Origin: Thermococcus indicus
GTDB lineage: Archaea > Methanobacteriota_B > Thermococci > Thermococcales > Thermococcaceae
Reading direction: 5' to 3'
Length of the DNA stretch: 64,000 nt
Assembly (NCBI RefSeq): GCF_006274605.1
Contig: NZ_CP040846.1
Span: forward strand, 434,001-498,000
Positions 2,295 to 16,310 of this stretch are shown one piece after another (positions within the stretch are counted from its first letter, which is position 1; each line of letters opens with the position of its first letter). The position numbers were made by a program, and so were the translations under genes. The notes under the pieces were generated by a model that saw only the letters and a list, made by a program, of their open reading frames with translations, was not told the DNA's origin and searched no databases.

Positions 2295-2732
2295 ATGAGG
2301 TTCGTCGTTGACGCTTCCCTACTCATTGACGCTTTCTCCAAATTTAACGAGGAACGGCGAAGGCTTGCGCTGAAGGTCTTTGAAGCGATTGAAGGCCACG
2401 AGATCTACGTTCCCAGGATATGCATGATCGAGTTCGTGAACGTCCTGTCCAGGTTTACACCGGAGGAAAAGGTCAGGGGTTTCCTGGAGGTTTTCGATTT
2501 CTTTAACCTGGTTGGGGAAAGTGAGTTCTTTGACGAGGCCGTTGAACTGGCCTTTGGGCTTCATTCGAGGGCGGCTGACACTTACTACATTTCAACCGCG
2601 ATGATTGTTGGAGGCATTCTGCTGACCAATGACAGGAGAATGGTAGAGAATGCCAGAGGTTCAGGCCTTGACGTGTATTACATCCTCGAAGAATCCGATG
2701 CCTTCTTCAAACTCCTGGAGGTGAGCGGATGA
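2295..2732 (+). CDS. vapC: PIN-domain ribonuclease toxin (VapC)
   Basis: A 145-residue PIN domain, a Mg-dependent endoribonuclease of the VapBC class. The acidic active site is visible: the first Asp in [14 protein letters not shown], Glu in CMIEFVNVL, Asp in [12 protein letters not shown] and Asp in LLTNDRR. It follows its DUF104 antitoxin by 2 nt, as in typical modules. Its TGA (2730-2732) overlaps the ATG of the GMP synthase glutaminase gene (2729), so toxin and an essential biosynthetic gene are translationally coupled. That is unusual and is treated in the findings. Cellular targets are unknown. Confidence 0.88.
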
Positions 2733-3295
2733 TAGTCATAATGGACAACGGCGGGCAATACGTCCACAGGATATGGAGGACTCTGAGATACCTCGGCGTT
2801 GAGGCAAAGATAATCCCCAACACGACACCTCTCGAGGGGATAAAGGCAATGAAGCCGAAGGGCATAATCTTCTCTGGCGGCCCGGACATCGAGAAGACCG
2901 GCAACTGCTCCGCCATCCTGGAGCACTACGACGAGTTCAACGTCCCCATCCTTGGCATATGCCTCGGCCACCAGCTGATAGCGAAGCACTTTGGCGGGAA
3001 GGTTGGAAAGGGAGAAAAGGCCGAGTACAGCCTCGTTGAGATTGAAATCCTTGAGGAGAATGACCTCTTTAAGGGCTTCCCAGAGAGGCTCAGGGTCTGG
3101 GAGAGCCACATGGACGAGGTGAAGGAGCTTCCTGAGGGCTTCAGGCTCTTGGCCAGGAGTGAGACCTGTCCGGTCGAGGCCATGAAGCATGAGAGCCTTC
3201 CAATCTACGGCGTTCAGTTCCATCCGGAGGTTGCCCACACGGAGAGGGGGGCGGATATATACCGCAACTTTGCGGAGCTCTGCGGGGAGCTTTAG
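2729..3295 (+). CDS. guaAA: GMP synthase, glutamine amidotransferase subunit
   Basis: A 188-residue class I glutamine amidotransferase that releases ammonia from glutamine for the PP-ATPase subunit. The nucleophile is Cys78 in GICLGHQ; the His/Glu pair is H165 and E167 in QFHPEV; the oxyanion strand is IFSGGPD. This is the free-standing GuaA glutaminase found in Euryarchaeota. The ATG overlaps the vapC stop by ATGA, with no room for a separate promoter directly upstream, so expression depends on the vapBC transcript or on read-through from guaAB. A T6 run at 3354-3359 may end the transcript. Confidence 0.94.
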
Positions 3296-3457: not shown

Positions 3458-3733
3458 TTGGGACACACGGTGTACTACAGCACCAGGATTGAAAGGTGGA
3501 ATGAGTTCAGGGAGTTCCTGGAAAATGTCTGTGAGGGACTCGGCTTCCATTTCCTTGAGGGCGAGGATGCAGTCATAGTCCTCCCGGAATGCCACGGTGT
3601 CGAGCCCCTGGAGATAAAGAAAAACGGTGAGGGATTCGTCAAGACGAACCTCGTCGAGCCCTGCCACTCGGTATATCTCCTCGTGCTTCATTCGGTTTCT
3701 TCCTTCGGTTCGGTCGAGCTCTGGGAGGACTGA
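3458..3733 (+). CDS. Hypothetical protein (about 91 residues)
   Basis: A small cytosolic-looking protein that I do not recognise. It is rich in aromatic and acidic residues (YYSTRIERWNEFREFLENV near the N-terminus) and has a central VIVLPECHGVEPL segment. There is no membrane segment or signal peptide. The start is uncertain: TTG at 3446 is the longest reading, but GGTGAT at 3449-3454 is a strong ribosome-binding site for the TTG at 3458. A TATA box lies upstream at the right distance. The 3' end overlaps the convergent DUF2101 gene by 46 nt. It is probably a real gene because it has its own promoter and ribosome-binding site. Confidence 0.6.
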   Translation: MGHTVYYSTRIERWNEFREFLENVCEGLGFHFLEGEDAVIVLPECHGVEPLEIKKNGEGFVKTNLVEPCHSVYLLVLHSVSSFGSVELWED

Positions 3734-4431
3734 CCAAGGTATACTTCCAGTATCCTTACGGGTCTGGCGCTCCTGAAGGTTCTATCCTCTGCGAGAACCT
3801 TCACAACTCTTCCAGGCTCCGCTTCCTCGACCGCCGGGAGCCAGTAGAAGCCCGGCTTGATGTTGGCCGCTATGTCGTCGTGGATGAAGACCCTAACGAG
3901 GCCACCTTTAATCTCTTCAACGATGCCGTAGGTGTAGTCCCTCCCGTATTTGCTTTTGAAATAATGGCGGAAGAGAAAGACCGTGAGCGCGACGGCCACT
4001 ATGTAGCCGTAGTAATAGTAGATCCCGGGGGAGAGTTCCCTAAGCAGAGAATAGCCCAAGAAGGCGAGGAGAGATAAAAATGAGATAGTATAATAAAAGA
4101 ACCTGTATGGTTCTGGATCAACAAAAAATTCCCAATTTTTGACTATTATCAATCTAGTATACAAAAGATAGATGATGTAAATACCTAGCAACCAGTACCA
4201 CTTAAGCCCTATGAGGATTATAAGTAGGTTTAAGATAAGGTAAACAACAAAAGTCATTTGTAGATTCAGACTCAGTAGTTCATGGATGCTTAGCCCTTCC
4301 CTCATTAAGTGTCTTGTAACCCTAAAAGCTGATGGTTTTTCATTAGGGAATGGTTTGATAATCTCCATGATTCTCTTTGAGAGAACTTCTGCCCTTTCCC
4401 CAATGTTGTATAGAAATTCTAGGGGGTTCAT
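3688..4431 (-). CDS. DUF2101 family membrane protein
   Basis: A 247-residue integral membrane protein with four predicted hydrophobic segments (about residues 60-76, 79-95, 112-130 and 138-152). It is flanked by a charged N-terminal helix and a soluble C-terminal domain (about 160-235) rich in beta strands (VEEIKGGLVRVFIHDDI, GRVVKVLAEDRTF). I recognise it as DUF2101, a Thermococcales family of unknown function. It is the last gene of the surface-protein operon, 4 nt after the stop of the preceding gene. The N-terminal half is clearly A+T-rich while the 3' third has normal composition, as if a compositional boundary runs through the gene. Its role is inferred only from position: perhaps a membrane anchor or assembly factor. 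Confidence 0.75.
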   Translation of the reverse strand: MNPLEFLYNIGERAEVLSKRIMEIIKPFPNEKPSAFRVTRHLMREGLSIHELLSLNLQMTFVVYLILNLLIILIGLKWYWLLGIYIIYLLYTRLIIVKNWEFFVDPEPYRFFYYTISFLSLLAFLGYSLLRELSPGIYYYYGYIVAVALTVFLFRHYFKSKYGRDYTYGIVEEIKGGLVRVFIHDDIAANIKPGFYWLPAVEEAEPGRVVKVLAEDRTFRSARPVRILEVYLGQSSQSSTEPKEETE

Positions 4432-4435
4432 TTTA

Positions 4436-6583
4436 TCACCCCGTCGTTAGCAGATCGTTTGTCGCAGTAAGGTCGTTTCCGAATATTGCCAACGCTGTTT
4501 TCCGATCTATGTAGAAGTTGTTGTCTATCACGACGGTTCCCGCAGAGACTCCGTACATTTTGTATCCTTCCCGTTTTGCCAGAGGGTCGTTCTCTAAGTA
4601 ATATTTAAGGAAGTAATAGTCGAGACAACTCTGACCATCTGGATTTGGATTCTTAGGATCAAGTCCTGCAGTTGCTAGTATAAGCTTGATCTTATCCTGT
4701 GAGGGTAGGATAAAACTGACAAGTCCTATAGGATAGTGCTGTCCGTCGGTTGAGACTCCAAGGAGGTCTTGTGTTCTGTTGGCAAGCTCTTCGTATTCTC
4801 TATGTACCGCTGGATCAAAGTTTCCTTCCAGTCTCTCAAAGAATGAGGGGGCATTGTAGAGGCCGAAGTAATAGCCATTTTCAAGGCAGCTTACAAAGGA
4901 CTGGATGTCGTAGGCACGTGCGTTAGGTCCTGACGGCGTTTCAGAAGGTTTGACTTTTAGAGTGTAATTCACCACACTGGGAGCATGACTTAGATCGTTG
5001 GGATCGGTGGTTTTAAGTTTAAATTTTATTTGCCATGTGTATCCCTCTGGGAGATTTATATCGTACAGTGTTAATGAGTTGAATCCATTATGCAAATATA
5101 ATGGGGATGTCCAGTAGTCCATAACCTCGTCCCCGTTGGTGTCTACCCCTACTTCCAAATAGATTATCTCGAAATTGCCGATGGAAGTCGTAACGTTGAG
5201 GCTCTGTATCTGGGCTGGCCTGGTTAAGCGGGGATTCCAGACCTTTGATATCCATCCTCCGTTTGTGTAATATACATAACCAGTTATTACGTTGTTCTGT
5301 GTGTATCCAGTTGCAGTATCCAATCCGAATAGAGTGTCTCCCCTTAGAAATATATCTCTTTTAGAAGGGGTTTCAGTGAATTGGATAGTATGATGATCCC
5401 ACGTTGTCTTTTTAGTTGTAACCTCTACTTCCGATGATAGCTTTAATTTAATTCTCGCTTTGGGATTCCACCATTTTCTGTCCACCTTTAGCTCAGTGTC
5501 CCATCTATATTCTATCGCCTTTGGAATGGCCGGGAGGGTGATAATTCTGCGATATTTGTCCCCAGATACGTGGTAGAGGTTTGGATCGTTCCACAGCACT
5601 CTCCAATGTTTCCCAATGGTCAATCCTTCACTAAATATATTGTAATGGGTTCCCGAATCGGTGTTGTTCTCCCACTCATCTTGGGTTGTTACTGACCATG
5701 CCTTAGGACCCGTTGTTTCACCTATGTCATCAAATACTAAGACACCGGTGTCACCATTTTTGATAATTTCAGTGGGGTCTTGATCTAATTCTGTTATTGT
5801 CACCTGAATACCTGTGTCGCTATATGTCCATATGCGTGTCTCATTGAACTGAATAGTCTCTCCGTATATCCCTGTTATTATCTCTTGGGGACTACTACCG
5901 GTTCCATTAAGGCGTATAATTGGGCTTCCTGTTAACTCTGGATAAGGGAACATACAGGCTTTTATGAGCCTGTGATACAGGTCGTATGTCTCCCTGGAAA
6001 TGAATGTGTCTTCTACACCCTCGATACTGATGATGGCTGTTGCGTTTCTGTTACTTGGAATTGTCCCGCTATATATCACGCTACCTGAGCTGTCCATTAT
6101 AGTTATCTCCGGCAGTCTTGCTATTACTGCTACTCTGAATGAATCCAAAGGAGCAACTGTTATCGTCATTTCGGAGAGTATCTCACTGACTGAGGGAGAA
6201 ACTACAAATCCCTGCTTGGCGAGAATTTCTGTTATGTTGGATAACCAAATTTTGAGATTCTGGTCGCTCTCAATGCCAAGGGAGGATTGTCCCCAAACTA
6301 TGAGCTGTGCTATTGTATCGTTTGCTCTCTGTCCCTGAATAAAATCCTTAGTGGCAACGTATTCCGTTGTGGATATTATGGCCCTTCTAGCTGAAATCTC
6401 AAGGGCCTTTTTAAAGTCCGCTTCTAAGTACTCCAAAACTTGGGACGTACGGTCTATTTGGATTCTCTCCCCTTGGGCTTGAACTACCTGATATGACACC
6501 TCTTCATAGGTGGCCATGAGTAACATGAGAGGAATCAGGAGTATAAGTACGGATGAATTTATAAGGAAAGCTCGTCTTCTCAT
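4436..6583 (-). CDS. Large extracellular protein with pilin-like N-terminal membrane helix
   Basis: A 715-residue protein starting MRRRAFLINSSVLILLIPLMLL: basic residues, one hydrophobic helix, then a long coiled-coil-prone segment (about 30-75), the architecture of pilin-like surface proteins. Unlike the upstream members it lacks the usual Gly/Ala-Gln-x-x-x-Glu cleavage context. The remainder is beta-rich with many Asn-x-Ser/Thr sequons, suggesting a glycosylated exterior domain. The start at 6583 overlaps the preceding stop as ATGA and has GGAGG upstream; a longer start at 6598 is possible. The gene is A+T-rich with codon use unlike the neighbourhood. I cannot name a function; a tip or minor subunit of a pilus-like structure is an inference. 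Confidence 0.7.
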   Translation of the reverse strand: MRRRAFLINSSVLILLIPLMLLMATYEEVSYQVVQAQGERIQIDRTSQVLEYLEADFKKALEISARRAIISTTEYVATKDFIQGQRANDTIAQLIVWGQSSLGIESDQNLKIWLSNITEILAKQGFVVSPSVSEILSEMTITVAPLDSFRVAVIARLPEITIMDSSGSVIYSGTIPSNRNATAIISIEGVEDTFISRETYDLYHRLIKACMFPYPELTGSPIIRLNGTGSSPQEIITGIYGETIQFNETRIWTYSDTGIQVTITELDQDPTEIIKNGDTGVLVFDDIGETTGPKAWSVTTQDEWENNTDSGTHYNIFSEGLTIGKHWRVLWNDPNLYHVSGDKYRRIITLPAIPKAIEYRWDTELKVDRKWWNPKARIKLKLSSEVEVTTKKTTWDHHTIQFTETPSKRDIFLRGDTLFGLDTATGYTQNNVITGYVYYTNGGWISKVWNPRLTRPAQIQSLNVTTSIGNFEIIYLEVGVDTNGDEVMDYWTSPLYLHNGFNSLTLYDINLPEGYTWQIKFKLKTTDPNDLSHAPSVVNYTLKVKPSETPSGPNARAYDIQSFVSCLENGYYFGLYNAPSFFERLEGNFDPAVHREYEELANRTQDLLGVSTDGQHYPIGLVSFILPSQDKIKLILATAGLDPKNPNPDGQSCLDYYFLKYYLENDPLAKREGYKMYGVSAGTVVIDNNFYIDRKTALAIFGNDLTATNDLLTTG

Positions 6584-8955
6584 CCGTTCTCCCTCCAAAT
6601 CCTTAAGGTTACTTGAATTGGTGTATAAAGCGAGGGGACCCTCTGGAGAGGCACAACGTCCGAGACCGTTGAATCGAGTTTTATTGGAATGACTAGGTGG
6701 TGCCCGTTTTTTTCAATTCCACCGAGCTTTTGGAAGAGCCTGACTATGGCATCGTCCAAGGCGTATTTCTTATAGGTTCCATCGTTTATTATATCATCGA
6801 TATCTACATTGAGATATTTAACGTTGGTAACGTATGCGACTCCAATGAGAAGGTTGTCTGATCTTACTGTTCCACTTATGTCTTGATAATAGTAAGTTAA
6901 ATTGTATCCAGTATATCTGGGGTATTCCTGAAGCAGGTATGGGAAGATGTCCCCGTACGGAACATAGCTGTCCAGCAGGATAAGAGTTTCACCTATTGAA
7001 TTGTCTTTTGAGACGTAGAATCCATCTCCAAAGTCAAGGATGAACTTGTTTTCCCCGGGGGCCATAGTGGGTTTAACTATCGAACCGTCGTTTGCCCGTG
7101 TCCAGATGCCATAGCCCCAGTGATTGAAAGTTTCTATTATATCCCGTTGTGTATTACAGTCTGGAATATTGTAGCAGAACAAGTCTACGGTTCCTATCTT
7201 GCTGTTTGAAATTGAAACTCTCTGAGAAGTTGGATCCTTAGTTACATCGTGATAGTATGTAAACTGGAACTTTGTCCAGATCGGGGTGATATTCGGGGGA
7301 ACGTCAAACGAAAATTCTAAGTGTCTACAGTACTCTCCTTCAAGATCCACACCAGAATCAGCGTCACATTCGTTGGCATGTACCCTGATTGGTCTGGTGA
7401 GAGATATTGTGTGTATTGAGTATTGAACTTTGGGATTGTACTTGACTTCTACGTAGGACTCGTTGCCATAAAGTTTGAAATGGGTTTCAGGAAGTTCTTC
7501 GGGATTTGAAAAGTCTATCACAGGATACTTTAAGTACTTCTCTAATCCTACTCCTATGACTATCGAGAAGTATTGGTTAGTAAGATTAGGTAGCAGTGAG
7601 GTGGGTATTTTCCACATGAAGTAATCGCCAACCCCTGTTGGGTGTCCAATATCGATCGTTCTGTCCTTGATTTTGAGGAACAGTTTAACCTTGTTAGAAT
7701 CTACTCCGTCGATTTTTGCTCTAACGGTTATGTCTGTTATGTTAAATGGGATGAATATTGCTTTTTCTATTTGGGTGGGGTTTCCGTTTGAAACAACCGT
7801 GGGAAAGTAAAATCTATGGGGAAACTCCATTGTGTTAAATTTTGTTACATTGTACACAATTATCACATGGCTAGCACCGCTATCTCCGATTGCATAGAAA
7901 GGCAATGATATTCCTAAGAAGTTGATCTTATATGGCTCAACGTAGAATCTGAAAACATTTTGTTTCTGGATTATTTCGAGGAGATTATTTGTCTGGGGAT
8001 CTTGAAGACTATTGTCTGTTACCTTAAGATGGACAGACCCTATTTGCGTGGGTGATCCGTAGGATTTTCCGTTTACTATTAGAGGGTTCCCATTTATGTT
8101 CACTGAAATTTTGGTCTCAGATAGTTTAGACCCTAAGTAACCAAAGACATTTTCCAAAAGATCTTCTAAGAGGTTACATATCTGATTGCTACATATTTCG
8201 AATTTGACTTTAGTAAGCCTAAATGGTTCGAAAAGTAATGTACTGCTTACTTTATTTTGAGGGTCCGTTAGGGAGTTTATGTTGAAGCTGTATGAGAACT
8301 CAATGGGAGCTTGGTCAAACTTTGGGATTATCCCTAGTATCCATTCGCCAGTGAAATATGGATAACTCAACACCGCATCACTCATGTATATATATTCATC
8401 CTGCTTTGTTATTTGAGCTAGATACAATCTAGCCATAAAACCTGAAGGTGTTTTATTATATTCATATCCGCTTAGTGTTATAGTGGAGGCAGAGACATCC
8501 TCAGCTTGGTTATAGGTTTCTGTTCCTCTTGTCATAAATGGATTTGTCCAGTTGTTTATCAGAAGTTCATAGTTATAATCCCCGATGGTGGAATTCAGGA
8601 TGTATCCTAGTATTTTGGCTGCTTTCTCTTTGAACTTGCTACCATATATCGGAGTCACTGCCCAATAAGCGGAGGCTATATCAAGTGGGGTCATGTCGGG
8701 GCTTACAAGAGTTGTGTTAAGCGTTCCATCTTCGAGCCATTCATTGATAGTATTTGGCGGGACTAACTGATTCAATGGAACCGTCCGTAAAACGAGCAAC
8801 GTATCTTGGGCGAGGTTTTTGTTCTGTAACCGAGCAGACGTCTTATACACGGATTGGAGCTGGGATTGTGAGGCAACAATCCCTACTACAAATATTGAAA
8901 TCAAGACGAGTGAGAGTAAGGCGTCAAGCGTGAAGATGAATCCCCTCTTTTTCAT
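6580..8955 (-). CDS. Large extracellular protein with type III signal-like N-terminus
   Basis: A 791-residue protein beginning MKKRGFIFTLDALLSLVLISIF: two lysines and Arg-Gly, then an uninterrupted hydrophobic helix containing an acidic residue, resembling class III (prepilin peptidase) signal peptides with cleavage after Gly. The rest is a long beta-rich domain with numerous sequons and a few cysteines, consistent with secretion. The ATG at 8955 is preceded by GGGGATGAT; the in-frame start at 9015 lies inside the upstream gene and is rejected. Like its neighbours it is A+T-rich. It overlaps the next gene by 4 nt. No homologous enzyme family is recognised; a structural surface role is inferred from the operon. 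Confidence 0.72.
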   Translation of the reverse strand: MKKRGFIFTLDALLSLVLISIFVVGIVASQSQLQSVYKTSARLQNKNLAQDTLLVLRTVPLNQLVPPNTINEWLEDGTLNTTLVSPDMTPLDIASAYWAVTPIYGSKFKEKAAKILGYILNSTIGDYNYELLINNWTNPFMTRGTETYNQAEDVSASTITLSGYEYNKTPSGFMARLYLAQITKQDEYIYMSDAVLSYPYFTGEWILGIIPKFDQAPIEFSYSFNINSLTDPQNKVSSTLLFEPFRLTKVKFEICSNQICNLLEDLLENVFGYLGSKLSETKISVNINGNPLIVNGKSYGSPTQIGSVHLKVTDNSLQDPQTNNLLEIIQKQNVFRFYVEPYKINFLGISLPFYAIGDSGASHVIIVYNVTKFNTMEFPHRFYFPTVVSNGNPTQIEKAIFIPFNITDITVRAKIDGVDSNKVKLFLKIKDRTIDIGHPTGVGDYFMWKIPTSLLPNLTNQYFSIVIGVGLEKYLKYPVIDFSNPEELPETHFKLYGNESYVEVKYNPKVQYSIHTISLTRPIRVHANECDADSGVDLEGEYCRHLEFSFDVPPNITPIWTKFQFTYYHDVTKDPTSQRVSISNSKIGTVDLFCYNIPDCNTQRDIIETFNHWGYGIWTRANDGSIVKPTMAPGENKFILDFGDGFYVSKDNSIGETLILLDSYVPYGDIFPYLLQEYPRYTGYNLTYYYQDISGTVRSDNLLIGVAYVTNVKYLNVDIDDIINDGTYKKYALDDAIVRLFQKLGGIEKNGHHLVIPIKLDSTVSDVVPLQRVPSLYTPIQVTLRIWRENG

Positions 8956-8959
8956 GTTA

Positions 8960-10600
8960 TCATCCCCTTGGCCATATCCATATTTCAACCTTACCCACGA
9001 TGTATCTATACTCAAGGTATGGCTTAATTCCGTTGTCTATAATCCTCGCATTGGTGAAATATGTTCTATATAACCAAAGCTGGACAATAGAACTAGGCTT
9101 GCTGAATAAATCGCTCCAGGGAACTTTAACTGTTGATTCCCCTGTGTAGGTGTGTACTGCCCTTAAATCTCCAGAGGAATCAAAGGAGTATACAGTAACC
9201 TCCAGCTTGTTATCCGATTTGCTGATTAATATTGCGCTTGATTCTTCTCCGTTCACCGCAACTAAAATTGCGTATCCCTTTGTGTCATTGACCTCTATCT
9301 CAAAATTGACTGATGGCTGAATGGGATATTTTATTGACCCATCTAGGAGTTTGGTTCCATTTTTGATTAGTGGAATGGTGTTGTTGTATACTCTAGTGTT
9401 GATTACAATAATCCTGCGAGAATTAGTGACCCATGAGGCATTTTTAGTGTTCATTTTGCCTCCTAATGAGAACTTCCCGTTAATATACGAGAAGTTCCAT
9501 GTTGGCTTTGAAAAGTTTCCAACGGTTGGAATCTGAACTTTAACTGAGCTTATTGAGGTTGGAACTACCTGGCACGTTGGAAAATCAGATGGATTAACGA
9601 GCTTTTCAAATGTGCCTGCAACGGAGACCTTATATCCTTCGGCGATTGGATGCCCAAGTATGTAAACAATCCATGTTCCGCTAGCAACATTTACATCTCC
9701 TGAGGCATCAGCCCATTGATCTTGAATAAATTTGTACCAATGAGCTTGGGCTACATAAGTGTCTGCTCCTGAACTACTAACCGCAGCATACCAAGTTCCA
9801 TCGACGTTAACATAGAGGATACCTCTTAGCTGTATGGAATACGTCACGTCTCCTGGGGCTTGATTTTCTATCAGGGGGTATTCAAGATTGGAGTTTTTTA
9901 TTATTAAGTTACCTGTCGTTGCAATATGAACAGTTCCCCTTGAGTTTGGGGTTATCTTCAGTGAATCTGAGATAATTATGTTGTAAGGAGTGCTGAGTTC
10001 TCCTGTGTTAGGATCATACCCAACTTTGAGTTTAAACCCTGCAGTGGAAGAACTTTGCACGTATAATGATCCAGGGAGGAGACAGAGGTTCCCCTTAACG
10101 TAAAGAGTTACATCCCCATATGCCTGAAATGGGTCGCAGGTTAAACTCGTAGACTCATCAATAAAGGTATCTTTAGTGATGTTACAAAAACCTGATCCAC
10201 TGAAGTTGACTATAATAACAGGTTCGGGAATATAAATATTAACGTAAAAATTATTATTCTGGCTTAGATTTTTTAGAAAGTTATACTCGTTTTGGTTTCC
10301 CTTTTCCAAAAGTTCAATGAATCTCCTAATTTTAGTGCACGATACCTCATGTGAGTTATCTTCCCTCCATCCTGGATACTTCATTTCCTGAATGTTTTCG
10401 TCCCAATCCTCCGGCTCCCCTGGTGTCTTGGTAAGAACATCCAGCATATTGTCGGCTATGTTTGTTCTCCCGTACCAGCTCACCAGGGAGTTTATCTCGC
10501 TCCTCAGGCTCTCAGATGTTGCGGAGACGGTGCCGAGTATCATTATGACAAGAACCAGTGAGAGCAGGGCGTCCATAGAGAAGAGCTGGCCCCTCCTCAC
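8960..10600 (-). CDS. Extracellular protein with type III signal-like N-terminus
   Basis: A 546-residue protein starting MRRGQLFSMDALLSLVLVIM, similar to the next gene's N-terminus (both have G, then a hydrophobic run with DALLSLVL). Prepilin-peptidase-type cleavage after Gly4 is plausible. The exterior domain is beta-strand rich, with repeated short strands and sequons and a CxC-poor centre. The start overlaps the upstream stop by 4 nt (ATGA). The first 170 nt of the gene have local G+C content, whereas the rest is A+T-rich, so the secreted domain may have been exchanged by recombination while the export signal was kept. The function is unknown; a pilus-like surface protein is inferred. Confidence 0.72.
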   Translation of the reverse strand: MRRGQLFSMDALLSLVLVIMILGTVSATSESLRSEINSLVSWYGRTNIADNMLDVLTKTPGEPEDWDENIQEMKYPGWREDNSHEVSCTKIRRFIELLEKGNQNEYNFLKNLSQNNNFYVNIYIPEPVIIVNFSGSGFCNITKDTFIDESTSLTCDPFQAYGDVTLYVKGNLCLLPGSLYVQSSSTAGFKLKVGYDPNTGELSTPYNIIISDSLKITPNSRGTVHIATTGNLIIKNSNLEYPLIENQAPGDVTYSIQLRGILYVNVDGTWYAAVSSSGADTYVAQAHWYKFIQDQWADASGDVNVASGTWIVYILGHPIAEGYKVSVAGTFEKLVNPSDFPTCQVVPTSISSVKVQIPTVGNFSKPTWNFSYINGKFSLGGKMNTKNASWVTNSRRIIVINTRVYNNTIPLIKNGTKLLDGSIKYPIQPSVNFEIEVNDTKGYAILVAVNGEESSAILISKSDNKLEVTVYSFDSSGDLRAVHTYTGESTVKVPWSDLFSKPSSIVQLWLYRTYFTNARIIDNGIKPYLEYRYIVGKVEIWIWPRG

Positions 10601-11103
10601 GGTACCACCACCCAGTCTCCGTTCACGGTAACGTTGAACTCGACCTCTCTCCCGCCTTGGTACAGCTTCCCATCCCGCAGGGTGAAGTCCCGTGACAGGT
10701 CTAGATAGTCCACCATAAACTCCCCGATGGCGCCGGCTATCTTTTCGTTCTCACCCTCCGAAAGGTACAGGTCGTGCTCAAATTTTATGAGAAGAACGAC
10801 CTTCCCCTCAGTTTCGAGCTGGGTTTTCAGCCCCGCAAACCTGAAGGACACCGGCTTAAAGCCTGTGTAGTTCTCCATCACCTCGTTTAGGGGCGCGTAG
10901 ACGCTCCCGTCTACCTCAACGCCTGTGGAAATGTAAGCCGCCGCCCGCGAAGAGGCGTCCCTAACTCCGGCTATGAGGAGCGTGTCCGAGTTCTGTTTTA
11001 TGTATATTCTCATGGTAAAGACTACCCCTCCGAGTATTATGGCCAGTATGAACAGCACCTCCAGTGACGTTTGGGCCTTAAGGCGCCTCTCTGATCTCGA
11101 CAT
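10597..11103 (-). CDS. Pilin-like protein (class III signal peptide)
   Basis: A 168-residue protein with the N-terminus RRLKA, QTSLEVLFILAII. The Ala then Gln-x-x-Leu-Glu pattern, with Glu at +5 of the mature protein and a hydrophobic helix, is the classic archaeal type IV pilin signal for a prepilin peptidase. A globular domain of about 130 residues follows, ending VNVTVNGDWVVVP. I chose the ATG at 11103 (MSRSERRLKA), which has GAGAGG upstream; it overlaps the preceding gene by 26 nt. The annotated-longest start at 11130 is less likely. It is one of three small canonical pilin-like proteins in the operon. Confidence 0.8.
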   Translation of the reverse strand: MSRSERRLKAQTSLEVLFILAIILGGVVFTMRIYIKQNSDTLLIAGVRDASSRAAAYISTGVEVDGSVYAPLNEVMENYTGFKPVSFRFAGLKTQLETEGKVVLLIKFEHDLYLSEGENEKIAGAIGEFMVDYLDLSRDFTLRDGKLYQGGREVEFNVTVNGDWVVVP

Positions 11104-11521
11104 ACCTCTCACCGCTTGAATCCAATCCAACGACCACCCATAGACTGGTTCTCCCTGGAATTATTTGAACGGTCGTTGTCCTCTTCACCGGCACGGGGAT
11201 GCTCTCGTAGGTCACGTATCTTCTTCCGGAGATCAGTGCATCGACTTTAAGCATGTTGGAAGTAGCATTGAGGGTCACGGTAACGACATCGCTTCCGGCA
11301 AGGGGAATCGGGAAGTCCTTTCTCACCGAAAAGCCCGGGCCTGCCGAATACGCCTTCGTCACAGTGTCTCTTAGGTCGATGGCGAAAACCTTGAGCCTCG
11401 TCTGTTTGTCGAAGGTCTTCGCCCCCATTATTTCCTGATTGGACAGGTTTATGAGGCTCACCACGGTGAGCATGATGAGAGTTACCGCGAAGAGCAGGTC
11501 GAGGCTCAGCTGTGCCCTCAT
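11078..11521 (-). CDS. Pilin-like protein (class III signal peptide)
   Basis: A 147-residue protein beginning MRAQLSLDLLFAVTLIML. Only two residues plus Ala precede the Gln, and Asp sits at +5 where most pilins have Glu. The hydrophobic helix is followed by about 115 residues of beta-rich domain ending YVEIREAP. The ATG at 11521 lies just after the upstream stop (TAA 11523-11525) and has GGTGGAT as ribosome-binding site, so translation is probably coupled. It is likely a minor pilin or pseudopilin of the same assembly as its neighbours. Confidence 0.8.
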   Translation of the reverse strand: MRAQLSLDLLFAVTLIMLTVVSLINLSNQEIMGAKTFDKQTRLKVFAIDLRDTVTKAYSAGPGFSVRKDFPIPLAGSDVVTVTLNATSNMLKVDALISGRRYVTYESIPVPVKRTTTVQIIPGRTSLWVVVGLDSSGERYVEIREAP

Positions 11522-11522
11522 G

Positions 11523-12149
11523 TTATCCACCCGGATTGATGTTTATCCAGAGCGTTCCGCTCGTTTCGTTGTACTCCATATCGGCGGGTTCATCCGGGTT
11601 CCATTCAACGACTATCCTCAGGTCAGAGGGTATGTCAGATATTTTTGGGGTCCTTGTGTCCTCCTCCGAAAAGAACTTAACTTTTATCGCATTTCCGGTG
11701 TAATTGTAGAGCATTGGTGTGAAAAAGGCGTTTTTGTCGTCCCCACTTACTGCTGGCCCCTCCCTGTTTTCGGTCACCGATACTAGGATTCCGGCGGAAA
11801 TCCCCGACGGATTGTTTCTGTCAGATGCATTTATCATGAAAATCTTCACAATGGGCTGTTCGTAGCCGTAGGCTCTGCTTAAGTAGCTCTCCTTGTTTAG
11901 ATACGTAACCTTAACGTACGTCGTCGCCTTCGAACCAAGCCCCTGGGCGTAAACTTGGCTTATCGTGTTGGCTATGGCATTGGCCAGGCTTTTCTCCTCG
12001 AGGGCCACCTGAATACGAAGGTTCTCCACAGATGGCGAGCCCTCGCTGAATGAGGTATTCCTCACCGAGTATAGCAGCAGTATCGTGAGTAGCCCGAATA
12101 TGAACAGGAACTCCAGGGTAACCTGGCCCCTAACCTTTTTATTCCTCAT
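11523..12149 (-). CDS. Pilin-like protein (class III signal peptide)
   Basis: A 208-residue protein, MRNKKVRG then QVTLEFLFIFGLLTIL. Gly at -1, Gln at +1 and Glu at +5 make this the most canonical prepilin signal in the cluster. After the helix comes a soluble domain rich in beta strands and sequons, with the C-terminus NINPGG. A GTG start at 12158 overlapping the upstream stop as GTGA is the alternative; the ATG at 12149 has GGAGTG upstream. It lies between the operon's membrane protein and two further pilin-like genes. It could be the major pilin of the system, but that is inference. Confidence 0.8.
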   Translation of the reverse strand: MRNKKVRGQVTLEFLFIFGLLTILLLYSVRNTSFSEGSPSVENLRIQVALEEKSLANAIANTISQVYAQGLGSKATTYVKVTYLNKESYLSRAYGYEQPIVKIFMINASDRNNPSGISAGILVSVTENREGPAVSGDDKNAFFTPMLYNYTGNAIKVKFFSEEDTRTPKISDIPSDLRIVVEWNPDEPADMEYNETSGTLWININPGG

Positions 12150-12154
12150 CCCTC

Positions 12155-12814
12155 TCACTCCAAGAAATACTGGGTGGACGATATATTTAATGGTTGCTCC
12201 CTAGATTTGGCACCCACAACCGCAAAAATGCCGGCCGGCGTTTTGAAGATCTCAACGCCAAAGTAGTCCCCGCTGAATATCTTGAACTTGTACCTCTCCG
12301 GCTGAAGGGAGTGCTTCTCCACCAGCTCGGCCAGTTCGTCAATGAAGAACTGCGTCAGCTCGTAGTAGATTAAATCAAGCTTCTCGCGGGTGGAATCCCT
12401 GATCAGAAGAACCGCTGGCAGTATCGCAAGCCCGATGATTAAGTATGGCTGACCTGTGAGGAGGGACGCGAGCGCAGTCGCACCTATTGCTGCACCTATG
12501 GCGGCATACACGCCCTTCTCCCGCTTCTTTGCCTCTTTAATCTCCTTAACCTTCCCCTCCCAGATGTCAAGCAGTGAGGGGTTGTAGAAATCAAAGGCTG
12601 TGTGGCGCTTTCCCTTTGCCATTCTCTCCCGGATGAGGTCGTCCCAGTCGTCCTTGTAGTAGATGACCTCCCCGTGGAGCCTCGCCCTCTCGGCATCGAG
12701 GGAGGAGATTATTCTGATTATGTCCTCGGCACTCTCATGGGCGATATGGGCGTAGACCTCCTTCTCATCTAAGTCCAGAGCAACCTCGACGGAGTCCTTT
12801 ATCGGCTCAGTCAT
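12155..12814 (-). CDS. Hypothetical membrane protein between CetZ-like GTPase and pilin-like genes
   Basis: A 219-residue protein. An acidic N-terminal helical region (about 1-100) ends in a lysine-rich stretch, then two hydrophobic segments at about 104-121 and 124-138 form a membrane hairpin. A cytosolic C-terminal helical and beta domain (about 140-219) follows. There is no signal peptide. It overlaps the CetZ-like gene by 8 nt and the next pilin-like gene by 4 nt. The topology would put both soluble parts in the cytoplasm, suited to linking the GTPase to a membrane platform. That role is inferred; no known family is recognised. Confidence 0.72.
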   Translation of the reverse strand: MTEPIKDSVEVALDLDEKEVYAHIAHESAEDIIRIISSLDAERARLHGEVIYYKDDWDDLIRERMAKGKRHTAFDFYNPSLLDIWEGKVKEIKEAKKREKGVYAAIGAAIGATALASLLTGQPYLIIGLAILPAVLLIRDSTREKLDLIYYELTQFFIDELAELVEKHSLQPERYKFKIFSGDYFGVEIFKTPAGIFAVVGAKSREQPLNISSTQYFLE

Positions 12815-13976
12815 CCTTCTCCCTCCGGAGCCTCTTGCCTATACCTTCGATATCGGGGTACTCTCTGTAGGGGATTTCCTTCAGCTCACTCCCACCCTTG
12901 GCGTACACGTCATCGAAGTCGGGCAGGCCGCTCAGGAGCTCCTTCTTTTTGTTCTCCGCTTTCTCCTTCGCCTCCATGAAGGACCGGGCGTACCGCTTGG
13001 CGGTGATGATGATGTCCTCGATGCTCCTGCTCTCGTAGATGCCGCTGAGGAGGGTTACAACTTCCACCTCCCTCTCGCGCGGGTCCGGGTAGAAGCCGCG
13101 GAATATCTGCTTGCCCCTTATCTTGTTGGTGAGGTAGTTGAGCGCCTCGAATATGTCTGTGGCCTTCAGGACTTCAGGAGGGCCGTGAACCGCCACGAGT
13201 CCGTAAAGGGCGGACTCTATGTTGGCGTCAAGGTACAGGCCCTCGCTCTCGAAGGACCGGGTGATGAGCCTAGAGAGGCTTTTGACCTTGTTAGCGTCGG
13301 CCTTGGCGTAGCCGACGGTTGCAAAGCTTCCGAAGGCCTTGAGGACGAACTTTAAATCGCTGGCGTCGAGGGTCTGCTCTCCAGGAACGTCTACCAGGGC
13401 CAAAAGTGACGCTATCCTCTCAACGATAGTGTAGTTTATCCTCTCGTAGGCCCTGCTTATATCGTCGGAGCCTTCCTTGAGTTTGTTGTTGTCTATGGCT
13501 ATTATGGAATCGGCGATCTTTGAGAGCTTGTCGATGGTTATGGCTGCGTTGATGGTAGGCCTTATTCCCTCCTCCCTGAGGGGGAGCGCTCCGATGGCCA
13601 CCACCAGGGAATCGGGGTACTCTTCCTTGAGCGCCTCGGCCAGAACTGGAGTTCCTCCGGCGCCGGTTCCGCCGCCGAAGCCGAAGGTCAGGAAGAATAT
13701 GTCCACGTCCTCGTAGCCGATTATTGAGCCTATCTTGCGCATGACGAGGGGCAAATCGCGCTTCATGGCCTCCCTGCCGAGTATTGGGTTTGCATTGACC
13801 CCCTTGCCGCCGGTCAGGTTCTCTCCTATGAGTATCCTCCTCTCGGGGGGGACATGCTTGAGGTACTCCAGGTCGCCCCTGGATGTGTTCAGGGCGAGCG
13901 CCTCAAAATCGACGAGGGAAAAGAGGTCGGCGATTTTAGTCCCGCACTGGCCGACCCCTATGATTAGAGCCCTCAC
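12807..13976 (-). CDS. Tubulin/FtsZ-superfamily GTPase, CetZ-like
   Basis: A 389-residue GTPase of the tubulin/FtsZ superfamily. The N-terminal nucleotide loop is GVGQCGTKIADLF (residues 7-19), the tubulin signature GGGTGAG is at 101-107, and the catalytic T7-type acidic loop LDASD is at 203-207. The GQCG start and the divergence from FtsZ1/FtsZ2 point to the archaeal CetZ group, which in haloarchaea shapes cells and supports motility rather than division. A charged C-terminal tail (about 340-389) may bind partners. It lies 7 nt downstream of the toroid gene and overlaps the following membrane-protein gene, so it is co-transcribed with pilin-like proteins. A cytoskeletal scaffold for pilus placement is my inference. 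Confidence 0.85.
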   Translation of the reverse strand: MRALIIGVGQCGTKIADLFSLVDFEALALNTSRGDLEYLKHVPPERRILIGENLTGGKGVNANPILGREAMKRDLPLVMRKIGSIIGYEDVDIFFLTFGFGGGTGAGGTPVLAEALKEEYPDSLVVAIGALPLREEGIRPTINAAITIDKLSKIADSIIAIDNNKLKEGSDDISRAYERINYTIVERIASLLALVDVPGEQTLDASDLKFVLKAFGSFATVGYAKADANKVKSLSRLITRSFESEGLYLDANIESALYGLVAVHGPPEVLKATDIFEALNYLTNKIRGKQIFRGFYPDPREREVEVVTLLSGIYESRSIEDIIITAKRYARSFMEAKEKAENKKKELLSGLPDFDDVYAKGGSELKEIPYREYPDIEGIGKRLRREKDD

Positions 13977-13983
13977 CTTCCTA

Positions 13984-16227
13984 TCACCCCGCGTCCAGGA
14001 GCTTTATCTCGTTGGGGTCAATGACGCCGTTTCCGTTGGAGTCCTTCGCCTCGAGCACCAGGTATTTTCCGTGGAAGTATTTGAAGAGGCCGGAGGTAAA
14101 TACGAGCTCCACGGCCCCGCTGCTCTGCTCGGCGAAGAGAACCATCAGCACGTGGCCGTCCTGAGTCCTGCCGGGTATTATGACTATGGTGCTGGCCAGG
14201 GGATACGTTCTGCCGTTTACCGTCACCAGCTGCCCCCTGACCTTGAGGGTTACCTCGCCGTTGTACCTCGAGACGTTGATGTCGCCGGGGGCGGCTAAGA
14301 AGATGTGGTTTCCATCTTCCACCTTGGAAACTCTCCCCTTCAGGTCCACACTCGATCCGAGTTCCTCGAGCTGGGGTGCGATGGTCTCGGCGACCGTCTG
14401 GTATTCCCCGGTGTAGTGAAGTTCCCACAATCCACCGCGGAGGGCGGTTATGGTCTCGTAGAGGGTTACCTCCGGCAGGAACTTGACGTCTTTGATGAAC
14501 TCAAGGGCAAGGGCGGTGTCCACGGTCGTTTTCGTCCCGTTGTGGAGGTTGTCAATGACCCACTTTAGGGCGTCGTTCTTTACGTCGTATCCAAGGGCGT
14601 CAAGGATCTCCGCGGCCCGGACTGTGTACTCCATCGAACCCACACCGTATGAGACCTCCCCCAGGATGTTTTCACTTCTGCCAAAGTGTCCCCAGGAGCC
14701 GTCGTCGAGTCTCTGGGCCATCAGCCAGTCCGAGTGCGGGCGCAGCTTTTCAATATCCGCGACCCTAATGAGGGACTCCAGAGCCTCCACCGTGGTTGGG
14801 ACGTTCTTTCCGACCATGACGCCCAGCAGGTGGTTGAGTATTATGCCCCATCCGTCCGGGGTCACGGAGAGGAGCCACTCCCCGGAGGCGTTTATGTCGT
14901 CTCCCTTCGCGCCGAGCTCCAGCAGCAGGTCAAGGCCCATTGCCGTTTCGTACGGCTGGGGTATGGAGAAGTACCCGGCCCACCTGCCAGGAAAGACCTC
15001 CATGGAGCGTGTGAAGTTCAGGAGTTCCTCCTTTTCGTCGTCGCTTAAATCGCCAAACTCCGCGAGAAGTTTGACCGTGTAGTAGTACTCCTCGGTCACT
15101 GTCCCGTGGAGTACCGCATCGTCCTTGGCATCTGTAAGGTGCTCCCGCGCCCATTCTATGGCCCGATCAACACCTTCCGGCACGGGGGTGCATGTCTTCA
15201 GCGCCCGAACCGCGTAGTAGGTTGCCTTTGCCGATCCGTGGGTTCCGGGGTGGATTCCCCAGCTTCCGTCGGGGTTCTGGCCTTCGGCCAGCGCTGAACA
15301 CAGCTCCCCCTTGGGGTTGGTGAAGTTCCCTGAGAGCCTGTCGGCCACGCTGGAGAACGCCATAACCGCGTAGGCGGTGGGGGTGATGGAGTCCGTATCG
15401 AGGAACGGGCCCTCCTTGCTGGTTAGATAATACGTCCCGTTGTCGTTGCCGGTCAGTTCGAGAACCGTCAGGGCCCGGCCGGTGTCAAAACTCAGCGGCT
15501 CGTAGAGAACCAGGGCGTACGTGAGCATGGCCCTCTCCCTTTCGTTGAGTCCGGCGGAGGACAGGAGTTCCTTGCACCTCTCCAGGTCCGCGGTTACGTT
15601 TCCGTAACCAATGGCTTTAAACGCTATGAGCCTGAGAGCGAGGTAGTCCGGCCTCAAATCCCTGGCTCTCTCCAGGTATTCGGCCCCGGCTTCGACCGCG
15701 ATGCTTTTCTCGGGCGTTAGACCCGTGGTTCCAAGCGCCCAGAGTGAGAGTGCGGTCGGGTAGAACTCCGTGGGGGAGTCCGCCAGGTATCCCCATCCCT
15801 CCCCATTGAACGCTGTTAGAAGATACGTCCTGCCATCCCTGATCGCTACTTCAATGTCGTTTTCGCTGATTCCGGTAGGGTAATCCTTTATAAGCTCCAT
15901 AACGGCCCCAAGGGCAATCAGAACGGTTGCAGTATCCTGGGGGGTACTCACCTCACCCCGGTAGTGGCCCCAGCCCCCATCCGGGTTCTGGATTTCGAGA
16001 AGCTCCTTCGTGACGTCCATCACAGTTGAGAGTGCGTCGGTACTGTTTCGGGCCTTCCCGACTGTGGAAACGAGGGCAGTTAAGAGCAGGGCCTTTTTTG
16101 GAATCTCGTTTGTGTCGGCCACCGTGTAACTGATGAATCCAAGGGACTCGTCTATTACACTCGCGGCACTGGTATATGGGAGCACAAGGAGCATGAACAG
16201 AATTACAGCGGTTAACGTCCTCTTCAT
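13984..16227 (-). CDS. Secreted alpha/alpha-toroid (terpene-cyclase-like fold) repeat protein
   Basis: A 747-residue protein with a Sec-type signal peptide (MKRTLTAVILFMLLVLPYTSAA) and repeated helical hairpins carrying QW-like motifs: QNPDGGWGHYRG, NGEGWGYLADS, QNPDGSWGIHP, LDDGSWGHFG. These are typical of the prenyltransferase/squalene-cyclase alpha-alpha barrel. No DxDD catalytic motif was found, so binding or structural use is more likely than cyclisation. The last 120 residues are beta-rich, and the end (DSNGNGVIDPNE) is a perfect EF-hand/dockerin calcium loop. It is the first gene of the surface operon, with a TATA at 16263-16277 and GAGGTG before the ATG. Its role is unknown, perhaps an extracellular adhesin or scaffold. 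Confidence 0.82.
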   Translation of the reverse strand: MKRTLTAVILFMLLVLPYTSAASVIDESLGFISYTVADTNEIPKKALLLTALVSTVGKARNSTDALSTVMDVTKELLEIQNPDGGWGHYRGEVSTPQDTATVLIALGAVMELIKDYPTGISENDIEVAIRDGRTYLLTAFNGEGWGYLADSPTEFYPTALSLWALGTTGLTPEKSIAVEAGAEYLERARDLRPDYLALRLIAFKAIGYGNVTADLERCKELLSSAGLNERERAMLTYALVLYEPLSFDTGRALTVLELTGNDNGTYYLTSKEGPFLDTDSITPTAYAVMAFSSVADRLSGNFTNPKGELCSALAEGQNPDGSWGIHPGTHGSAKATYYAVRALKTCTPVPEGVDRAIEWAREHLTDAKDDAVLHGTVTEEYYYTVKLLAEFGDLSDDEKEELLNFTRSMEVFPGRWAGYFSIPQPYETAMGLDLLLELGAKGDDINASGEWLLSVTPDGWGIILNHLLGVMVGKNVPTTVEALESLIRVADIEKLRPHSDWLMAQRLDDGSWGHFGRSENILGEVSYGVGSMEYTVRAAEILDALGYDVKNDALKWVIDNLHNGTKTTVDTALALEFIKDVKFLPEVTLYETITALRGGLWELHYTGEYQTVAETIAPQLEELGSSVDLKGRVSKVEDGNHIFLAAPGDINVSRYNGEVTLKVRGQLVTVNGRTYPLASTIVIIPGRTQDGHVLMVLFAEQSSGAVELVFTSGLFKYFHGKYLVLEAKDSNGNGVIDPNEIKLLDAG

Positions 16228-16262: not shown

Positions 16263-16278
16263 AATAAATAAACTTTTT
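16263..16278 (-). promoter_or_regulatory. Promoter of the surface-protein operon
   Basis: Minus-strand AAAAAGTTTATTTATT lies 36-50 nt before the ATG at 16227. It is the only good TATA element seen ahead of the ten tightly packed genes down to 3688. Confidence 0.55.
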
Positions 16279-16310
16279 CCATATTCCTGCGGAATAAAAA
16301 GAAAGGACGG

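What the first reader, a model, noticed from the sequence alone, without database searches (positions are those of the whole stretch)
3688..16227. Ten-gene surface operon pairing pilin-like proteins with a tubulin-superfamily GTPase
Ten minus-strand genes are packed with short gaps or overlaps of 4-26 nt: a secreted toroid protein, a CetZ-like GTPase (GGGTGAG and LDASD visible), a hairpin membrane protein, three canonical small pilin-like proteins, three large proteins with pilin-like N-termini, and DUF2101. No assembly ATPase (PilB) or PilC platform is in the window. Known archaeal type IV pili need those, while CetZ proteins act in cell shape. A dedicated cytoskeletal GTPase in a pilin operon could mark a pilus or adhesin machine positioned by tubulin-like filaments. 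The structure is seen; the function is inference.
Basis: partly seen in the sequence, partly recalled or inferred. Interest (0 to 1): 0.75.

Follow-up and report, generated by a model that had tools for sequence, protein, structure and literature searches.

The report
Known archaeal pilin operon with CetZ
This is the type IV pilus minor-pilin and tip-adhesin operon that Thermococcales archaea carry, already published as containing a tubulin-like CetZ gene; what I add is that the CetZ gene always sits next to one hairpin membrane protein, a good candidate for its membrane anchor.

Summary
Ten tightly packed minus-strand genes lie at 3688-16227: secreted toroid, CetZ, hairpin membrane protein, three small class III pilin-like proteins, three large pilin-like proteins, DUF2101. 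One conserved BRE/TATA promoter precedes gene A. The association is not new. Makarova 2016 (citing Szabo 2007) reports this GTPase and 'squalene cyclase' in clade 1 type IV pilus loci of most Thermococci; Brown & Duggin 2023 found all 15 Thermococcales cetZ regions pilus-linked.

New here: over 94 Thermococcales genomes, CetZ and the hairpin protein occur in the same 89 and are adjacent in all 89; the absences are draft assemblies. The motor exists: PilB and two TadC proteins lie about 285 kb away, and never closer than 31 kb in 45 genomes. Eleven of twelve good genomes without the archaellum ATPase keep CetZ, hairpin and PilB, so this is not an archaellum accessory. Gene I carries the PilY-like DUF2341 domain in 10 of 10 relatives, but not here. 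CetZ ends in an invariant LLxGLPDF[DE]DxY peptide; the hairpin has a near-invariant N-terminal domain.

Best reading: minor pilins and tip adhesin of a clade 1 pilus, with membrane-tethered CetZ as cytoplasmic scaffold (inferred). Interest is moderate.

The parts
16265..16280 (-). BRE/TATA promoter element GGAAAAAGTTTATTTA upstream of gene A
   Evidence: same element (GGAAAA[GC]TTTATTTA or close) at a similar distance upstream of the toroid gene in most of 18 relatives
13984..16227 (-). A: secreted alpha/alpha-toroid protein, 747 aa (the 'squalene cyclase' of the literature)
   Evidence: SQHop_cyclase_N E 4.5e-7; hydrophobic N-terminus; no DxDD cyclase motif here or in 6 of 7 relatives, the single DLDD lying at the extreme C-terminus of its protein
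12807..13976 (-). B: CetZ, tubulin-superfamily GTPase, 389 aa, with C-terminal LLSGLPDFDDVY peptide
   Evidence: Tubulin 1.7e-29 and CetZ_C 4.5e-16; GGGTGAG and the two T7-loop Asp (LDASD) invariant in 21 sequences
12155..12814 (-). C: hairpin membrane protein, 219 aa: conserved N-terminal domain (about 5-91), hydrophobic hairpin (about 92-146), C-terminal domain
   Evidence: adjacent to CetZ in 89 of 89 genomes; conservation 0.86 / 0.47 / 0.73 by segment; helical AlphaFold model, pLDDT 80
11523..12158 (-). D: small pilin-like protein, class III signal VRG|QVTLEF
   Evidence: Class_IIIsignal E 1.1e-4; motif kept in 20 of 20
11078..11530 (-). E: small pilin-like protein, MRA|QLSLDLLF
   Evidence: motif kept in 20 of 20
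10597..11103 (-). F: small pilin-like protein, LKA|QTSLEVLF (start corrected to 11103)
   Evidence: Class_IIIsignal E 0.0012; motif kept in relatives
8960..10600 (-). G: large pilin-like protein, RRG|QLFSMDALLSL
   Evidence: N-terminus conserved, body variable
6580..8955 (-). H: large pilin-like protein, KRG|FIFTLDALLSL (start corrected to 8955)
   Evidence: 49-residue N-terminal helix then beta-rich domains in a low-confidence model, pLDDT 62
4436..6583 (-). I: large pilin-like protein, probable pilus-tip adhesin (start corrected to 6583)
   Evidence: orthologues in 10 of 10 relatives carry DUF2341, best E 1.5e-22; this copy does not
3688..4431 (-). J: DUF2101 membrane protein
   Evidence: PF09874 E 8e-73; 7.1-10.0 kb downstream of CetZ in 75 of 76 genomes

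Best explanation
This is the minor-pilin and tip-adhesin operon of the clade 1 archaeal type IV pilus in Thermococcales. Shown: gene content, gene order, conserved promoter, class III-type N-termini, CetZ and toroid identity, and a separate PilB-TadC-TadC motor operon plus stand-alone pilins elsewhere in the genome. Inferred: prepilin peptidase cleaves D-H and probably I; the motor works in trans; proteins D-H prime or decorate the pilus and I sits at its tip; secreted toroid A binds at the surface. CetZ polymerises in the cytoplasm. The hairpin protein C tethers it to the membrane, probably by binding the invariant C-terminal peptide of CetZ with its conserved N-terminal domain, so that the pilus base is placed or held at one site.
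For: CetZ and C present together in 89 of 94 genomes and adjacent in 89 of 89, gap -5 to 98 nt. Full order kept in 20 sampled loci. DUF2341, the domain of PilY-like tip adhesins in clade 1 loci per PMC4858521, in 10 of 10 relatives of gene I. PilB and two TadC in own genome, PilB in 93 of 94. CetZ operon kept in 11 of 12 good genomes without archaellum FlaI. Conservation falls from inside to outside: CetZ 81-94% > C 51-87% > pilins 26-45%. Invariant CetZ C-terminal peptide and near-invariant N-domain of C. Haloferax CetZ1 affects archaellum assembly and placement (PMC11621097).
Against: No interaction, localisation or pilus has been shown. PilB lies on average about 250 kb away, so motor and pilins are linked by inference. 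PilB and CetZ are both near-universal, so their co-occurrence is uninformative. This window's gene I lacks DUF2341. Part of the CetZ C-terminal motif (D/E-D/E-I/V-Y) is also in Methanothrix (Methanosaeta) thermophila CetZ, so it may serve another purpose.
Confidence: 0.6

Rival explanations
1. CetZ has a general shape or envelope role in Thermococcales, and the pilin genes are only co-transcribed with it.
For: CetZ1 of Haloferax has a general shape role (PMC11621097). CetZ is far more conserved than the pilins.
Against: Order and one conserved promoter kept across six genera; independent CetZ2-pilus linkage in haloarchaea (PMC9856176).
Confidence: 0.2
2. The pilin-like proteins build a short pseudopilus or surface-adhesin complex, not a pilus filament.
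For: Three of six pilin-like proteins are very large with beta-rich bodies; the major-pilin candidates are elsewhere.
Against: Clade 1 pili of Methanococcus have several minor pilins plus a stand-alone major pilin (PMC4858521).
Confidence: 0.13
3. CetZ and the hairpin protein belong to the archaellum, for example to the unidentified polar cap (PMC5517150).
For: Polar cap proteins are unknown; CetZ1 in Haloferax affects archaellum placement.
Against: 11 of 12 good genomes without FlaI keep CetZ and the hairpin (against 21 and 24); no archaellum gene in the operon; in Pyrococcus the polar cap is seen only in cells with archaella (PMC5517150).
Confidence: 0.07

Closest known systems
Clade 1 archaeal type IV pilus loci (Makarova et al. 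2016, PMC4858521; Szabo et al. 2007)
   Same: class III pilins, DUF2341 adhesin gene, PilB plus two TadC in the genome, FtsZ-family GTPase arCOG02202 and squalene-cyclase-like arCOG03396 in most Thermococci
   Different: PilB and TadC are in a separate operon 285 kb away in this genome; this copy of the adhesin gene lacks DUF2341
Thermococcales cetZ gene neighbourhood (Brown & Duggin 2023, PMC9856176)
   Same: pilin families around cetZ in all 15 Thermococcales examined there; scaffold role for CetZ proposed there
   Different: the constant hairpin partner, its distribution and the independence from archaella are added here
Haloarchaeal cetZ2 - pilB2/pilC2 regulon (PMC9856176)
   Same: CetZ-family gene beside type IV pilus genes
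   Different: that regulon contains PilB2 and PilC2, a different ATPase clade and CetZ subfamily
FtsZ membrane anchors ZipA and SepF
   Same: expected logic: a membrane protein binding a conserved C-terminal peptide of a tubulin-family filament
   Different: hairpin protein C shows no sequence match in Pfam or NCBIfam and no fold match in PDB; binding not shown

Membership tests
CetZ family | Tubulin/FtsZ GTPase domain plus CetZ-type C-terminal domain | tested here: met
   PF00091 1.7e-29, PF21011 4.5e-16, both above cut-off
CetZ family | catalytic GGGTG(A/S)G and T7-loop aspartates | tested here: met
   GGGTG and the two Asp of LDASD invariant in 21 sequences
CetZ family | filament formation in the cell | not testable with these tools
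   needs microscopy or biochemistry
clade 1 archaeal type IV pilus | several class III signal pilins | tested here: met
   D-H conserved motif; D and F near Pfam cut-off
clade 1 archaeal type IV pilus | assembly ATPase and two TadC platform proteins in the genome | tested here: met
   G000:C1:158225-163709, T2SSE 1.6e-45, T2SSF 2e-23 and 6e-17
clade 1 archaeal type IV pilus | ATPase belongs to clade 1 by phylogeny | not tested
   inferred from the tandem TadC arrangement and from Thermococci being in clade 1 (PMC4858521)
clade 1 archaeal type IV pilus | DUF2341 tip-adhesin protein | tested here: inconclusive
   10 of 10 orthologues of gene I have it, the window copy does not
clade 1 archaeal type IV pilus | prepilin peptidase | tested here: met
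   one A24/Arc_PepC peptidase at G000:C1:1844903-1846117
squalene/terpene cyclase (gene A) | catalytic DxDD motif | tested here: not met
   absent in the window copy and 6 of 7 relatives; so filed as a toroid fold, not as a cyclase
archaellum | co-occurs with archaellum motor genes | tested here: not met
   11 of 12 good genomes without FlaI keep CetZ

The most novel reading that the evidence does not exclude
Gene C is a dedicated membrane tether for CetZ, so Thermococcales have a two-part, membrane-bound tubulin-type scaffold devoted to building or placing a type IV pilus.
Probability: 0.45. Interest if true: 0.65.

Novelty: already known. Interest (0 to 1): 0.4.

Why it matters
If the tether model is right, it is a concrete, genetically testable case of a tubulin-family filament serving a pilus, in genetically tractable archaea (Thermococcus kodakarensis), and it names the missing membrane partner of a CetZ. 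If it is wrong, the operon is still the known pilus locus and the finding is ordinary.

Tried and rejected
Archaellum or polar-cap role: rejected as main reading because the operon persists in genomes without FlaI. Enzymatic terpene cyclase for gene A: rejected, no DxDD. Pilus motor truly absent: rejected. Fold relatives of the hairpin protein: none credible (best PDB E 0.31). Fold search of H: only generic beta-sandwich matches with TM below 0.15 on a low-confidence model, not used. Homologues of the hairpin outside Thermococcales: weak C-terminal similarity in three genomes of the same phylum (E 2e-4 to 0.01), in a different neighbourhood and without the N-terminal domain; not treated as orthologues. 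Halorussus and Salinigranum plasmid CetZ regions show no pilus genes and no similar partner. Defence families: none. I found no paper reporting mutants of this operon in the library searched.

Full report
Check of the observation. The GTPase matches Pfam Tubulin (1.7e-29) and CetZ_C (4.5e-16) above the curated cut-offs, and its best PDB sequence matches are 4b46, 3zid and 4b45, which from my own knowledge are the CetZ structures. Starts supported by relatives are 8955 for H, 6583 for I and 11103 for F, which gives gaps of 4-7 nt or overlaps of 4-26 nt. A BRE/TATA element GGAAAAAGTTTATTTA at 16265-16280 lies in the gap behind the wyosine-type radical SAM gene, and the same element stands before the toroid gene in most of 18 relatives. 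I take genes A-J as one transcription unit; this is inferred from spacing and promoter, not measured.

Prior knowledge. Makarova et al. [quoted passage not shown] 2007 (not read here). Brown & Duggin 2023 (PMC9856176) found all 15 Thermococcales cetZ regions they examined to be pilus-associated, with conserved order, and proposed that CetZ may scaffold type IV systems. The central claim of the finding is therefore known.

Distribution. Among 94 Thermococcales genomes the CetZ orthologue (at least 81% identity) is in 89; the five without it are fragmented drafts. The hairpin protein is in exactly the same 89, and the two are adjacent on one strand in all 89, gap -5 to 98 nt. DUF2101 lies 7.1-10.0 kb downstream in 75 of 76 genomes; in the exception (G008) genes A-I are intact and only DUF2101 has moved. 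In 20 sampled loci of six genera the order is kept, with one toroid and one F not detected. CetZ_C is absent from the 21 non-Thermococcales genomes of the phylum.

The motor. The window's genome has PilB (1162 aa) with two tandem TadC proteins, preceded by DUF515, at about C1:155.9-163.7 kb, an archaellum locus near 1.85 Mb, one A24 prepilin peptidase and two stand-alone small pilins near 1.06 Mb. I saw no pilin gene in the PilB locus. PilB is in 93 of 94 genomes. In 45 genomes with both on one contig it is never closer than 31 kb to CetZ (median about 253 kb; circular distances approximate for some genomes). So pilins and motor are separate transcription units that must work in trans if they form one machine.

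Archaellum control. FlaI is missing in 20 of 94 genomes, 12 of them of high quality. All 12 keep PilB and 11 keep CetZ and the hairpin. The twelfth is a 210-contig draft. The CetZ operon is thus not an archaellum accessory.

The large proteins. Gene I has the DUF2341 domain in 10 of 10 relatives, best E 1.5e-22. Makarova et al. regard this as the PilY-like tip adhesin of clade 1 pili. The window copy has conserved ends but a different middle (about residues 300-560) without DUF2341, which suggests domain replacement at an exposed adhesin. H models as a 49-residue N-terminal helix with beta-rich domains, at low confidence. The toroid A has a hydrophobic N-terminus and lacks the DxDD motif of cyclases.

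CetZ and the hairpin. CetZ residues 1-320 are on average 91% conserved in 21 sequences. The C-terminal peptide LLxGLPDF[DE]DxY is at 90%, ahead of a variable tail. The hairpin protein has an N-terminal domain at 86% and a C-terminal domain at 73% around a hydrophobic hairpin at 47%. Its model is helical (pLDDT 80, pTM 0.73) with no PDB fold match. The pattern of conserved cytoplasmic parts, variable membrane part and variable exterior, and the fixed pairing, fit a membrane tether of CetZ. Binding is inferred. The [DE][DE][IV]Y end of the peptide is also visible in 3zid, so only part of the motif is special to Thermococcales.

Mechanism. Most likely CetZ polymers on the inner face of the membrane, held by protein C, organise the base of a clade 1 pilus whose minor pilins and tip adhesin come from the same transcript, while PilB/TadC and the major pilin come from other loci. 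Shown: gene content, linkage, distribution, motifs. Inferred: polymerisation, tethering, pilus placement, tip role of I, surface role of A. Precedent: CetZ1 in Haloferax has been implicated in archaellum assembly and positioning, under MinD control (PMC11621097).

Verdict. The system is already known; the hairpin partner and the archaellum control are modest additions that I did not find in the papers read, though their supplements were not available. Interest 0.4.

Noticed in passing
G000:C1:158225-161713 (locus L011:8226-11714): The PilB ATPase carries an in-frame intein of about 521 aa (residues ~477-997) with a LAGLIDADG endonuclease domain (Intein_splicing 7.5e-23); many relatives lack it, with flanks joined at 476|998.
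   Followed up: partly
2071-2732: An AF2212-like antitoxin and PIN toxin pair sits between the two GMP synthase subunit genes (1093-2049 and 2729-3295).
   Followed up: no
4436-6598: The central third of gene I differs from all 10 relatives examined and lacks DUF2341, as if an adhesin domain had been exchanged.
   Followed up: partly
L084:6135-6836, L085:6640-7380, L086:7179-8081: Non-Thermococcales of the same phylum encode a membrane-hairpin protein with a similar C-terminal part beside an amino-acid permease-like gene; function unknown.
   Followed up: partly
G000:C1:1711500-1713200 (locus L014:7500-9207): A repeat array that looks like a CRISPR, seen as repeated FNSPRVLLQ-type ORFs.
   Followed up: no
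L056:13339-15795: A relative of gene G shows a weak bactofilin-like match (E 2.9e-4, below cut-off), suggesting a beta-helical repeat.
   Followed up: no
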